NCBI GenBank assembly: GCA_024280035.1
Contig: JAJRQV010000011.1
Coordinates: 1 to 64,000, forward strand
Source of the DNA: Campylobacterales bacterium
GTDB taxonomy: Bacteria; Campylobacterota; Campylobacteria; Campylobacterales; Sulfurimonadaceae
Direction: 5' to 3'
DNA length: 64,000 nt
The notes beneath the pieces were generated by a model. That model was not told where the DNA came from. It saw nothing but the letters and a program-made list of their open reading frames with translations, and searched no databases. Positions 33,068-41,820 of the stretch are shown here, piece by piece. Positions within the stretch are counted from its first letter, which is position 1; each line of letters opens with the position of its first letter. The position numbers and the translations under genes were made by a program.

Positions 33068-33207
33068 AAGAAGCCTAGTCGATATAATTTAACTTATAAA
33101 AGAAGAAAACTATCTCTCTTGTTTTATAAGGTATCCCCTTGTATAAAGAGGCATTATAGCTAAAGAATAAAAATAATCCAGTAGCTTTTATGTTTTTATT
33201 ATTTAAG

Positions 33208-33357
33208 TCCCATTTTATGTGGGTTTAAAATATTGTTAGGGTCAAAACTAGCCGTGGCGGTTTCGCACAGCGAAAAGTTTCTAAAGAACTTTCAAAGAGG
33301 ATAAAAGTCTTACTTTAATCCCATTTTATGTGGGTTTAAAATATTGTTAGGGTCAAA
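33208..33357. repeat. Duplicated 3' end of glcD flanking an AAAAC-AGCC element
   Basis: A 39-bp perfect direct repeat occurs at 33208-33246 and 33319-33357. The second copy is the real 3' end of the FAD oxidase gene; the first is an orphan copy beyond its stop. Both continue to encode Gly-Leu-Lys-stop, using different codons. Between them at 33244-33280 lies the dispersed element AAAACTAGCCGTGGCGG with the hairpin TCGC-ACA-GCGA, then GTTT. The repeat period is 111 bp. See the findings for the matching structure at nth. Confidence 0.85.
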
Positions 33358-34692
33358 CGCCATTTTAATAGAATTAAAAAGATTCATCTCTTCATCTGTA
33401 AATGCCATCTTCATATAAGGTGCTTTGGCAATTCCAATACCGTGCTCACCACTTAGTGTTCCGCCTAAGTCAATAGTTGCTTGAAAAACTTCTTCAATGG
33501 CTTCATAAGCAATTTTAACCTGCTCAGGATCTGAACCATCTACCATAACATTAGTGTGCACATTTCCATCTCCTGTGTGACCAAAACAGGGGATGTTAAT
33601 ACTATACTTATCAGCAATAGCATAGAACTTTTCAAGAAGTTCAGGCAAAACTGCTCTTGGAACGGTAACATCTTCATTAAGTTTTTTAGAACCATAAACA
33701 GAAAGAGCAGGGCTTGCATTTCTTCGTGCAAACCAGAGGTCTGCTGCCTCTTTGTCATCTTTAGCACGTTTAAACTCAGAACAACCATTTTCTTTAAAAA
33801 CTTCTTCAATTTTATTGAGTTGAAAGTCTAAATCATCTTCTAAGTTACCATCAACATCTGTAACTAAAATAGCGCCTGCTTCTGTTGGTAATCCCTTATT
33901 AAAAGTTTGCTCAACGGCACGAATAGTGAGGTTATCTAAGAACTCCATAGCCACAGGGGTAATTCCACTCGCCATCGTCTTGTAAACGGCTTCCATCGCT
34001 TGTTTTACGGAAGGAAAAATACCCATAGCTGTTTTGGTTAACTTAGGTTTAGGAATTAGTTTCATGGTTACTTCAGTGGTTACTGCGAGTGTTCCTTCTG
34101 AAGCGATTAAGATACCTGCAATGTTATACCCTGCCACATCTTTAATGGTACGTTTACCGGCTTTGATGATGTCTCCATTAGGAAGAACAGCACGAATAGC
34201 CATAACATAATCTTTAGTGATTCCATACTTAGCGGCACGCATTCCACCTGCATTTTCGTTTACATTTCCACCTATGGTTGAGTAGTCTTGACTTGCTGGA
34301 TCGGGGGGATAAAATAGACCCACTTCTTCGACTGCTTTTTGTAAATCCATATTAATGACACCGGGTTGAACAATGGCAACCATGTTTTTCATATCAATTT
34401 CTAAGATTTTATTCATATGCTTTTCAAGAGCAAGGACAATCCCTCCCTCAGAAGGTAAGGCACCGCCAGTAAAACCAGAACCTGCTCCCCGAGGAACAAT
34501 AATGATTTTGTACTCATTACAGTGTTTTAAAATAGCTGAGATATCTTCTTCATGGCGAGGAAAAATAACCGCATCGGGTTCAAAATGTTCACGTGTTGCA
34601 TCATATGAGTAGGCAATAAGATGTGCCTTATCTTCAAATATATTTTCGTCACCAACAATGTTTTTAAAATATTCGTAGTGTTTTTTATCCAT
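33310..34692 (-). CDS. glcD: FAD-linked oxidase, GlcD/D-lactate dehydrogenase type
   Basis: This 460-residue flavoprotein oxidises a 2-hydroxy acid (glycolate or D-lactate). The PP-loop FAD domain carries PRGAGSGFTGGALPSEGGIVLAL and TIGGNVNENAGGMRAAKYG, and the C-terminal domain has CFGHTGDGNVHTN and GTLSGEHGIGIAK. Length fits GlcD. It shares one base with the upstream PgbA-like gene, so they form an operon; the same pair is neighbouring in Campylobacter as I recall. The 3' end exists twice because of the element next to it. Confidence 0.92.
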   Translation of the reverse strand: MDKKHYEYFKNIVGDENIFEDKAHLIAYSYDATREHFEPDAVIFPRHEEDISAILKHCNEYKIIIVPRGAGSGFTGGALPSEGGIVLALEKHMNKILEIDMKNMVAIVQPGVINMDLQKAVEEVGLFYPPDPASQDYSTIGGNVNENAGGMRAAKYGITKDYVMAIRAVLPNGDIIKAGKRTIKDVAGYNIAGILIASEGTLAVTTEVTMKLIPKPKLTKTAMGIFPSVKQAMEAVYKTMASGITPVAMEFLDNLTIRAVEQTFNKGLPTEAGAILVTDVDGNLEDDLDFQLNKIEEVFKENGCSEFKRAKDDKEAADLWFARRNASPALSVYGSKKLNEDVTVPRAVLPELLEKFYAIADKYSINIPCFGHTGDGNVHTNVMVDGSDPEQVKIAYEAIEEVFQATIDLGGTLSGEHGIGIAKAPYMKMAFTDEEMNLFNSIKMAFDPNNILNPHKMGLK

Positions 34693-39250: not shown

Positions 39251-40537
39251 ATGATGTCAGTTATAAAGATATTTAAAAAGATTTGTACGATTCCACACTG
39301 CTCCTTTGAAGCTGAAAATTTAGAAAAATACATTATTGAAAAAGCTGAATCTTATGGTTATTCGGTACAAAAAGATAAGCTTGGGAATATCCTTTGTTCA
39401 CATCAAGAGGCAAATCTTATTTTACAATCGCATTATGACATGGTCTGCATTGGACAGGCACCGAATTTAGAACTGTATGAAGAAGAGGGTTTCTTAAAAG
39501 CAAAAGAGAGCTCTTTAGGTGCAGACAATGGTATTGGTATGGCTATGATGCTCTCTTTAATGCAAGAAAAAAAGAAAGTGTCTTGTCTTTTTACGGCAGA
39601 TGAAGAGGTGGGGCTTATTGGTGCTCAAGGTTTAGAGTTATATATCAAAGAAAAATGGATGTTAAACCTTGATACTGAAGAAGAGGGATATGTTTATATT
39701 GGTTGTGCAGGTGGGGCAGACATTATTGCTAAAAAAGCTTTACATTTTCAAGAAATTACTGAGGAGGTCAGCTCTTATGAGGTGATAGTTGATGGATTAG
39801 CAGGAGGTCACTCAGGAATTGATATTGATAAAAACATTCCTTCTGCTATTAAAGTCTTGAGCTCTTTTTTAGTACATATTCCTCATTATTTAATTCGTAT
39901 AGAAGGGGGAGAAAGACGTAACTCTATTTCAAAAAGAGCAAAAGCGGTAATTTCTGTACCAAAAGGTGTTATTGTTGATAATAATAGAGAAAATATTAGT
40001 ATTAAAAAACTTAAGGTTAAACAGACAAAGATGATTGATCAAGGGCACATGATTTCAGAAATGATTCATGCCTTTGCCCAAGGTGTACGTGCTGTTAATA
40101 AGGAATTAAATATTATTCAAAGCAGTATAAATCTTGCCCTTATTGAAACTACTGAAAAAGAGATAAAAGTAAGTTTAAGTGCACGTTCAATGGACTCTGA
40201 AGAACTCTTGGTTTTAGTTAATGAAACGCTGTGCTTTTTTAAGGCATTTGATTTTATGGCACGTTCCGAGGGTATGTATCCAGCATGGAAACCTGAGGTA
40301 AATGACTTCTCTTTAAAGGTACAAAAAATCTGTAAAAAACATTTTAAAGAAGCTGACTTCAGAGCCATACATGCGGGCTTAGAGTGTGCCATCTTAAAAC
40401 AACATTCACCACATTTAGATATTGTCTCTATAGGTCCCAATATTTATAATCCTCACTCCTCATGTGAATCTGTGGAGATGGCTTCAGTCGAACGTGTGTA
40501 TAATGCCTTAAAAGAGATTGTAAGGGAATGCTCATGA
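39251..40537 (+). CDS. pepD: Aminoacyl-histidine dipeptidase (peptidase D), M20 family
   Basis: This 428-residue cytosolic metallopeptidase cleaves Xaa-His dipeptides. Zinc-site motifs are LQSHYDMVC, the bridging ESSLGADNGIGMA and TADEEVGLIGA; the lid domain includes GGHSGIDI. The last metal ligand region is PHSSCESV. ATG 39251 or the next ATG is preceded by AAGGA. Its TGA overlaps ATG 40534 of the lipoprotein gene. The AAAAC-AGCC element starts right at its stop codon. Confidence 0.9.
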   Translation: MMSVIKIFKKICTIPHCSFEAENLEKYIIEKAESYGYSVQKDKLGNILCSHQEANLILQSHYDMVCIGQAPNLELYEEEGFLKAKESSLGADNGIGMAMMLSLMQEKKKVSCLFTADEEVGLIGAQGLELYIKEKWMLNLDTEEEGYVYIGCAGGADIIAKKALHFQEITEEVSSYEVIVDGLAGGHSGIDIDKNIPSAIKVLSSFLVHIPHYLIRIEGGERRNSISKRAKAVISVPKGVIVDNNRENISIKKLKVKQTKMIDQGHMISEMIHAFAQGVRAVNKELNIIQSSINLALIETTEKEIKVSLSARSMDSEELLVLVNETLCFFKAFDFMARSEGMYPAWKPEVNDFSLKVQKICKKHFKEADFRAIHAGLECAILKQHSPHLDIVSIGPNIYNPHSSCESVEMASVERVYNALKEIVRECS

Positions 40538-40986
40538 AAACTAGCCGAGGCGGTCTCAAAGAGAAGTTTATTTATAAAACTAGCCAAGGCAACCACAAAG
40601 TGAAACCTTATAGATTAAAAGCCTTACTGTTTTTATTAATAATTGCATTCTCAAGTGGTTGTGTCACTCTCGGAGTAGGTGCAGCTTCCGCCTTAGGCGG
40701 AAGCTATTATCTTTCCGGAGAGATTAAAGCTTCGTATCCAGTTTCAATTTATCATCTGTATGAGGTGACGCTGTATACCTTTGAAGAAGAGGGTATTAAA
40801 AGTACGTTAGTAAAAAATTCTAAAATTGATGCCGACATTGAGGGTGAATTTGATGATGGAGAAAAGGTAAAAGTACATATTTACTATAATAAAAAAGAAG
40901 AAGCGACCTTAGGTATTAGAATAGGAAGTATAGGTGACGAAAAAAGAAGTAGAGAACTTCTCAAAAGAATGCAAAGATATATTTAA
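40534..40986 (+). CDS. DUF3568-like lipoprotein with an in-frame repeat insertion
   Basis: ATG 40534 overlaps the pepD stop (ATGA). Residues 3-24 are encoded by a 66-bp insert made of two AAAAC-AGCC elements. Removing it gives MKPYRLKALLFLLIIAFSSG followed by the lipobox Cys, an ideal lipoprotein signal. With it, the signal has a long charged extension. A GTG just after the insert (40600) could instead start translation. The mature part (about 110 residues) resembles DUF3568 periplasmic lipoproteins. Whether the extended protein is exported is unclear. Confidence 0.75.
   Translation: MKTSRGGLKEKFIYKTSQGNHKVKPYRLKALLFLLIIAFSSGCVTLGVGAASALGGSYYLSGEIKASYPVSIYHLYEVTLYTFEEEGIKSTLVKNSKIDADIEGEFDDGEKVKVHIYYNKKEEATLGIRIGSIGDEKRSRELLKRMQRYI
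40537..40610 (+). repeat. Two tandem AAAAC-AGCC elements
   Basis: Copy 1 (40537-40570) reads AAAACTAGCCGAGGCGG, hairpin TCTC-AAA-GAGA, then GTTT. Copy 2 (40576-40610) reads AAAACTAGCCAAGGC, hairpin CAC-AAA-GTG, then AAACCTT. The 66-bp insert is bounded by TGAAA at 40535-40539 and 40601-40605, a possible target duplication. Confidence 0.8.
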
Positions 40987-41075: not shown

Positions 41076-41205
41076 TAAGCAAGTTTACGCAGGTTTAAAA
41101 CTCTTTGTAGTTTTACAAAACAAGCCGTGGCGGTCGCGAAGCGATGTTTCAGGCGAAGCCGCATAAGCAAGTTTACGCAGGTTTAAAACTCTTTGTAGTT
41201 TTACA
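41076..41205. repeat. Duplicated 3' end of nth flanking an AAAAC-AGCC element
   Basis: A 42-bp perfect direct repeat lies at 41076-41117 and 41164-41205 (period 88 bp). The second copy is the true 3' end of nth, with its stop; the first is an orphan beyond it. Between them (41117-41149) is AAAACAAGCCGTGGCGG with hairpin TCGC-GA-AGCGA and GTTT, then a second mini-hairpin GGC-GAA-GCC. The arrangement is the same as at glcD. Confidence 0.9.
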
Positions 41206-41820
41206 GTACGCTTGTAAAAAACATTCACTGTCACACTTAGGTCTTTGCGCTGTACAGATATAACGTCCAAAAAGTACCATTCCTTGATGGAGTTGATGCA
41301 GATTAGTTTTAAACTTTTTAGCCAGGGTGGCTTCTGTTTTTAAAGCCGTGAGGTCATCACTTAGACCTAAACGATGAGAGACTCTAAAAACGTGGGTATC
41401 TACTGCCATTAGATTCGCTTTAGTAAACTCAATCAGTACAACATTGGCTGTTTTTTGACCAACACCGCCTAGTGTCATAAGTTCTTTAGCTTCAAGTGGA
41501 ACTTCTCCATCATAAACCTCTACAACACGTTGTGCCATTTTGATGATATTTTTTGCCTTATTATTAAAAAATGAACAGCTGTGTATTAAGGCTATTACAT
41601 AATCTAAGTCAGCATTTCCTAAACTTAGGGGGTCAGGATATTTTTCAAAGAGAGCAGGGGTGATAAGATTTACCCGTTTGTCAGTACATTGGGCTGAAAG
41701 AGCCACAGCAATGACGAGTTCAAAGGCATTTGTATAATTAAGTTCAGTAACTGCTTCATCATATCTTTTGACGAATTCTTCTTTTATTTCTTCTATCTCT
41801 TTTTTAGTTGCTTTTTTCAT
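41173..41820 (-). CDS. nth: Endonuclease III
   Basis: This 215-residue base-excision repair glycosylase/AP lyase removes oxidised pyrimidines. The helix-hairpin-helix and catalytic Lys are in LGGVGQKTANVVL, and the catalytic Asp in AVDTHVFRVSHR. The C-terminal 4Fe-4S ligands read CTAQRPKCDSECFLQAYC; spacing is C-x6-C-x3-C-x5-C, one residue more than the usual x2. A TACAAT box lies six bases before ATG with no Shine-Dalgarno. The 3' end is duplicated downstream. Confidence 0.94.
   Translation of the reverse strand: MKKATKKEIEEIKEEFVKRYDEAVTELNYTNAFELVIAVALSAQCTDKRVNLITPALFEKYPDPLSLGNADLDYVIALIHSCSFFNNKAKNIIKMAQRVVEVYDGEVPLEAKELMTLGGVGQKTANVVLIEFTKANLMAVDTHVFRVSHRLGLSDDLTALKTEATLAKKFKTNLHQLHQGMVLFGRYICTAQRPKCDSECFLQAYCKTTKSFKPA

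What the first reader, a model, noticed from the sequence alone, without database searches (positions are those of the whole stretch)
33208..33357. The 3' end of glcD is duplicated around the same element
A 39-bp perfect repeat (period 111 bp) of the gene end flanks an element in the same orientation relative to the gene as at nth. Both copies finish Gly-Leu-Lys-stop, though with different codons (GGA TTA AAG versus GGA CTT AAA). Two independent genes with the same architecture make coincidence unlikely and point to one mechanism that targets gene 3' ends and preserves the C-terminus.
Basis: partly seen in the sequence, partly recalled or inferred. Interest (0 to 1): 0.72.

Follow-up and report, generated by a model that had tools for sequence, protein, structure and literature searches.

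The report
Tiny mobile hairpin duplicating gene ends
A tiny hairpin-forming repeat, scattered in dozens of copies through one genus close to Sulfurimonas, sometimes inserts into the end of a gene while duplicating about 40 or 76 bases of it, so the gene keeps an intact end; this looks like a new, unusually small mobile element rather than a device that seeks out gene ends.

Summary
The 39-bp repeat of the glcD end (33208-33246 / 33319-33357) and the 42-bp repeat of the nth end are the only two exact direct repeats of 16 nt or more, less than 1 kb apart, in the 64-kb window, and both bracket one short element. A covariance model finds 12-94 copies in each of six same-genus genomes. The element (35-48 nt) folds into a three-way junction with very strong covariation, has one precise end (AAAAC, joined to an AAAA(C) already present in the target) and one variable end. 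About 58 of 170 sites are simple insertions, TTTAG|AAAA, mostly without duplication. In 32 sites the target left of the element is duplicated. The spacing from the element end to the right-hand AAAA clusters at 73-80 nt (13 of 31) and 37-48 nt (8), with a gap between. Most duplications cover a stop or start codon of a gene on the right, so the gene stays whole. I read this as insertion with a long target duplication, seen inside genes mainly where it restores the gene, not as targeting of gene 3' ends. Empty sites in relatives confirm insertion. The enzyme is unknown: RVT_1, Y1 transposase and Cas1 are all absent from this genome.

The parts
33244..33282 (+). element E at glcD: AAAACTAGCCGTGGCGGTTTCGCACAGCGAAAAGTTTCT
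   Evidence: covariance model R1 52.9 bits; DNA fold three-way junction
33319..33357 (-). in-gene copy (c1) of the duplicated glcD end, exact part; with mismatches 33310-33357
33208..33246 (-). outer copy (c2) of the glcD end, exact part; with mismatches 33199-33246; retains native downstream promoter region
   Evidence: empty sites L361, L362
33283..33309 (.). filler between element end and the glcD stop; filler plus copy = 76 nt to the right-hand AAA(A)
   Evidence: interpreted as diverged intergenic part of the target duplication (inference)
33310..34692 (-). glcD (FAD-linked oxidase, 460 aa)
   Evidence: Pfam PF02913 and PF01565
41117..41151 (+). element E at nth, A-type (AAAACAAGCC..ATGTTTC); extended right end GGCGAAGCCGCA to 41163
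41164..41205 (-). in-gene copy of the nth end (42 nt)
41076..41117 (-). outer copy of the nth end (42 nt)
41173..41820 (-). nth (endonuclease III, 215 aa)
40537..40571 (+). third element copy in the window, no long direct repeat, at the stop codon of the upstream gene; a second degenerate copy follows at about 40576

Best explanation
The element is a short (35-48 nt), non-autonomous, hairpin-forming mobile repeat. Its left end AAAAC joins to an AAAA(C) in the target. Often it inserts simply (element ...GTTTCTTTAG next to the target AAAA). In a minority of events the stretch of target ending at that AAAA, about 40 or about 76 nt long, is copied again on the far side of the element, giving X-E-X-Y. 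At glcD the AAA lies inside the last codons and the duplicated stretch reaches past the stop codon, so the gene body gains a complete end (c1) in front of the element and the old end (c2) is stranded downstream. Insertions in genes survive when the duplication covers the gene boundary, which makes the element look as if it targets gene ends. Later recombination between diverged strains makes the outer parts of the two copies differ. Shown: family, structure, precise left end, microhomology, spacing clusters, gene-boundary pattern, empty sites in relatives. Inferred: that the duplication is a target-site duplication made at insertion, most likely by single-stranded, replication-coupled copying or template switching started at the AAAA; that survivorship explains the gene ends; that strain recombination explains the mosaic copies. 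No enzyme is identified.
For: Only two exact repeats in the window, both around the element. 46, 94, 34, 17, 12 and 20 copies in the six genomes of the genus at E<=0.5. Structure: 96.1% of cells paired, 234 double-change cells against 80.9 +/- 6.9 in shuffles, none of 500 reaching it, and all slid versions at most 52% paired. Left junction: the base before AAAA is almost never A and is C in 48%. Duplication in 32 of 170 sites above every swapped-flank control. Spacing 73-80 nt in 13 of 31, p=0.0001 against uniform and 0.005 against a normal null. Gene boundary at or close to the start of the right-hand copy in most duplicated sites; the right-hand gene reads into the element in 23 and away from it in 8 of 35. 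Empty sites with a single gene end: glcD in G003 and G005, nth in G002 and G003. Synonymous excess between copies 45:18.
Against: Most sites show no duplication, so a long target duplication is not an obligatory step. The filler between element and gene boundary is not recognisably similar to the left copy's flank even where the coding part is identical (glcD, L282), so the full-length duplication is inferred from spacing. The spacing test is post hoc. Several sites are shared between species (glcD, nth, L002/L221), so events are fewer than sites. No mobilising protein found.
Confidence: 0.55

Rival explanations
1. Two-step origin: the element first sat in the intergenic spacer beside the gene, and later its left end recombined by AAAA microhomology with an internal AAAA(C) of the same gene (or an incoming allele), leaving a copied gene end.
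For: The repeat begins at the stop or start codon within a few nt at many sites; start-codon sites carry a ribosome-binding-like AAGG in the filler (L229, L009); allelic, mostly synonymous differences between the copies.
Against: Filler length plus repeat length clusters at about 76 or about 40 nt, which two independent distances would not give. No orthologous site with element, filler and gene but without the copy was found among the fetched loci.
Confidence: 0.17
2. SINE-like target-primed reverse transcription: an RNA of the minus strand ending in UUUU is primed by a nicked target AAAA, giving a precise 3' junction, a variable 5' junction and long variable target duplications.
For: One precise and one variable end, AAAA microhomology, target duplications of tens of nt.
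Against: No RVT_1 reverse transcriptase in the window's own genome or in G002, G004, G005. The two found in the genus, in G001 and G003, have no element within the fetched 3 kb. G.T pairs are favoured on the plus strand (39 vs 10), so the conserved fold is on the opposite strand to that RNA.
Confidence: 0.1
3. REP-like element moved as single-stranded DNA by a RAYT/IS200-type HUH transposase supplied in trans, the long repeats being secondary.
For: Size, hairpin structure favouring one strand, intergenic abundance and tandem arrays resemble REPs; Y1_Tnp genes exist in G001, G004, G005.
Against: No Y1_Tnp in G000, G002 or G003. No GTAG tag in the consensus. No convincing element beside the Y1 genes tested.
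Confidence: 0.13
4. A dedicated mechanism recognises gene 3' ends and rebuilds the C-terminus.
For: Repeat boundaries coincide with stop codons even in near-identical copies (L282, L230).
Against: Most copies have no gene-end duplication; gene starts, intergenic sites and gene interiors are also used; the duplicated gene ends share little sequence beyond AAAA(C).
Confidence: 0.05

Closest known systems
REP / REPIN elements (GTAG-tagged palindromes with RAYTs; PMC3733652, PMC3116915)
   Same: 20-40 nt structured repeat, tens of copies, mainly intergenic, tandem arrays, one strand's fold favoured
   Different: no GTAG or CGTC tag at the ends, no RAYT-type transposase in this genome, three-way junction instead of a single hairpin, target duplications of about 40 and 76 nt
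Rickettsia palindromic elements (RPE; described in PMC2229807)
   Same: palindromic mobile repeat that also sits inside genes, in frame
   Different: 35-48 nt instead of 105-146 bp; different bacterial phylum; long duplication of the target
YPAL / RU-2 of enterobacteria (PMC2229807, PMC2759123)
   Same: non-autonomous repeat with target duplications of variable length; fusions to gene 3' ends known for RU elements
   Different: 168 bp; duplications 3-26 bp against 37-98 nt spacing here
Small dispersed repeats (SDR) of cyanobacteria (from memory, not read here)
   Same: very small mobile repeats with a conserved fold and compensatory changes
   Different: 21-27 nt; no sequence relation tested; no long target duplication that I know of

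Membership tests
REP / GTAG-tagged repeats | GTAG (or CGTC) tetranucleotide at one end of the hairpin | tested here: not met
   alignment A1 consensus AAAACTAGCCGTGGCGGTTT..AAAAGTTTCT; flank profile
REP / RAYT system | Y1 HUH transposase in the genome, usually flanked by the repeat | tested here: not met
   PF01797 absent in G000, G002, G003; only a non-significant model hit (E=0.28) near the Y1 genes searched
Retroposon / group II intron / retron-borne element | reverse transcriptase available in the host | tested here: not met
   PF00078 absent in four of six genomes including the window's own
CRISPR-type (Cas1) integration | Cas1 integrase | tested here: not met
   PF01867 absent in five of six genomes
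Attachment site of an integrative element | same core sequence at all sites and a large insert | tested here: not met
   repeats differ from gene to gene; insert is about 40-100 nt
MITE | terminal inverted repeats with a fixed target-site duplication | tested here: inconclusive
   5-bp outer stem AAAC(T/A)/(A/T)GTTT covaries, but duplications are AAAA only, about 40 or about 76 nt
Known structured RNA family | Rfam match at gathering score | tested here: not met
   no match in the window
Rickettsia palindromic elements | insertions inside protein genes that keep the reading frame | tested here: met
   19 copies inside ORFs, one in a phage gene; length and sequence differ, so membership is not claimed

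The most novel reading that the evidence does not exclude
A mobile element of only 35-48 nt, folding as a three-way junction, spreads by an undescribed mechanism that joins one precise end at AAAA(C) and duplicates the target in discrete lengths (about 0, 40, 76 and perhaps 119 nt), without reverse transcriptase, Y1 transposase or Cas1.
Probability: 0.25. Interest if true: 0.8.

Novelty: new variant of a known kind. Interest (0 to 1): 0.6.

Why it matters
It would be among the smallest mobile elements known, and its long, stepped target duplications do not fit the usual transposition chemistries. The X-E-X-Y arrangement explains how a repeat can enter coding sequence without damage, and it makes the question of what moves tiny bacterial repeats testable in a genus where no obvious transposase accounts for them.

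Tried and rejected
Rfam search of the window: nothing. Tandem Repeats Finder does not report the glcD repeat, because the copies are separated. Element at RT or Y1 transposase loci: no convincing match. Genes between or beside neighbouring elements in G001: housekeeping (truB, csrA, GHMP kinase, grpE, fliE) and a ParE toxin, no transposase. Cas1 as integrase: absent. Element in phage and plasmid collections: none in phages and only partial chance-level matches in plasmids. Filler traced to another place in the genome: only short chance-level matches. The first structure string for A2 was one column off and scored poorly; the corrected one is. A class II aldolase gene as birthplace of the element: the native family is conserved to ...EQAKL, so both origin and in-frame insertion remain possible.

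Full report
Observation. The glcD repeat is exact over 39 nt at the stated coordinates with period 111 and extends to 48 nt with three mismatches. In the gene the inner copy ends GGA TTA AAG TAA and the outer copy GGA CTT AAA TAA. An exhaustive scan of the window for exact repeats of 16 nt or more, 20-1000 nt apart, returns two hits only: glcD and nth. Both bracket the same element in the same orientation relative to the gene.

The element. A BLAST search of the window's genome (2.51 Mb, 107 contigs, a close relative of Sulfurimonas by its glcD hits) gave diverged copies. A covariance model from 24 copies finds 46 copies in this genome and 94, 34, 17, 12 and 20 in the other five genomes held for the genus. 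In a sample of 151 genomes of the family, four genomes of other genera have one copy each. None of 54 genomes outside the genus matched the short consensus pattern with up to one mismatch. The consensus is AAAAC[T/A]AGCCNNGGCGGT-hairpin-[A/T]GTTTC. It folds as a three-way junction: an outer stem in which T-A and A-T swap (66 and 46 distinct sequences), a small GC hairpin and a variable hairpin. With the corrected structure 96.1% of cells pair and 234 cells have changes on both sides against 80.9 expected from shuffles. G.T pairs outnumber A.C on the plus strand 39 to 10, so the plus strand appears to be the folded one. The common hairpin loops are GAA and AAA.

Junctions. I read 207 copies at 170 sites. 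The left end is precise: most copies start AAAAC, the preceding base is almost never A and is C in 48%, and in duplicated sites the right-hand copy ends in AAA, AAAA or AAAAC from the target in most cases, that is, 3-5 nt of microhomology; nth has only one A. The right end comes in three forms: GTTTCTTTAG followed by (A/T)AAA, 58 sites, mostly without repeat; GTTTCAGGCGAAGCCGCA, 20 sites, including nth; and GTTTC(T) followed by other sequence, 92 sites, which hold most of the repeats.

Duplications. With the left copy anchored at AAAA, 32 of 170 sites score 12 or more; swapped-flank controls never exceed 11.7. Examples: galU in this genome (L036, 82 nt) and, at a different point, galU in G001 (L230, 93 nt, one mismatch); L282 (66 nt, perfect); nth in this genome and G005; glcD in this genome and G001. 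The distance from the element's GTTTCT to the right-hand AAAA is 73-80 nt in 13 of 31 sites and 37-48 nt in 8 (nth counted as 45 after its 12-nt extension), with nothing between 48 and 68. That regularity is the main reason I treat the filler between element and gene boundary as part of one target duplication of defined length.

Genes. In most duplicated sites the gene body lies right of the element and the repeat begins within a few nt of its stop or start codon. Of 35 duplicated sites the right-hand gene reads toward the element in 23 and away in 8. Insertions without a duplication are mostly intergenic, with 18 inside ORFs. The simplest reading is survivorship: inside a gene, events whose duplication restores the gene persist.

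Ancestral copy. At glcD, G003 and G005 have one gene end followed directly by the promoter region of the next gene; in the window and in G001 the outer copy sits next to that same region. The outer copy therefore keeps the ancestral right flank, and the inner copy with the element was added. nth is empty in G002 and G003 and occupied in this genome, G001 and G005. Several insertions are shared between species at about 70-85% nucleotide identity of the flanks, so many are old.

Why the codons differ. Over 279 codons compared, the two copies differ at 45 codons synonymously and 18 non-synonymously, far from the neutral expectation for a stranded copy. Differences lie mainly in the half away from the element (56 vs 23), although the anchored method favours this. 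I infer that recombination between strains joins an outer part from one allele to an inner part, element and gene from another. This also explains glcD: 39 identical nt next to the element and three synonymous differences beyond.

Machinery. PF00078, PF01797 and PF01867 are absent from the window's own genome, and none of the three is present in all six genomes. No convincing element copy lies beside the reverse transcriptase or Y1 genes tested. The enzyme, if there is a dedicated one, is unknown; template switching during replication is possible. At L018 a host stretch resembling the element's right half seems to have been used in place of it, which fits template switching.

Limits.

Noticed in passing
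window 40537-40610: Two tandem element copies right at the stop codon of the upstream gene (TGA completed by the element's first A); the same bases can be read as the N-terminal extension of a lipoprotein-like ORF starting ATGAAAACTAGC.
   Followed up: partly
L380:981-1018: An uncultivated virus contig carries an element copy in frame inside a phage structural or protease-like ORF, a possible vehicle between hosts.
   Followed up: partly
L006, L234, L381: In two genera the last codons and stop of a class II aldolase gene (..EQAKLAKAV*) are element sequence; the native family is conserved to ..LEQAKL, so this may be the element's birthplace or an in-frame insertion.
   Followed up: partly
L036, L230: galU ends (gene name by eye, not tested) are hit in two species at different points, with an older partial copy of the gene end further out in L036.
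   Followed up: partly
L004, L231, L241, L251, L260, L263: Element copies of the GTTTCTTTAG form are often embedded in larger composite intergenic repeats shared by several loci.
   Followed up: no
spacing values: Spacing modes 8 (simple insertion), about 42, about 77 and perhaps 119 nt look like steps of about 35 nt; unexplained.
   Followed up: no
L366 (G001 nth): A second element copy sits inside the outer nth copy as a simple insertion at TTTT|AAA, showing both insertion forms at one locus.
   Followed up: partly
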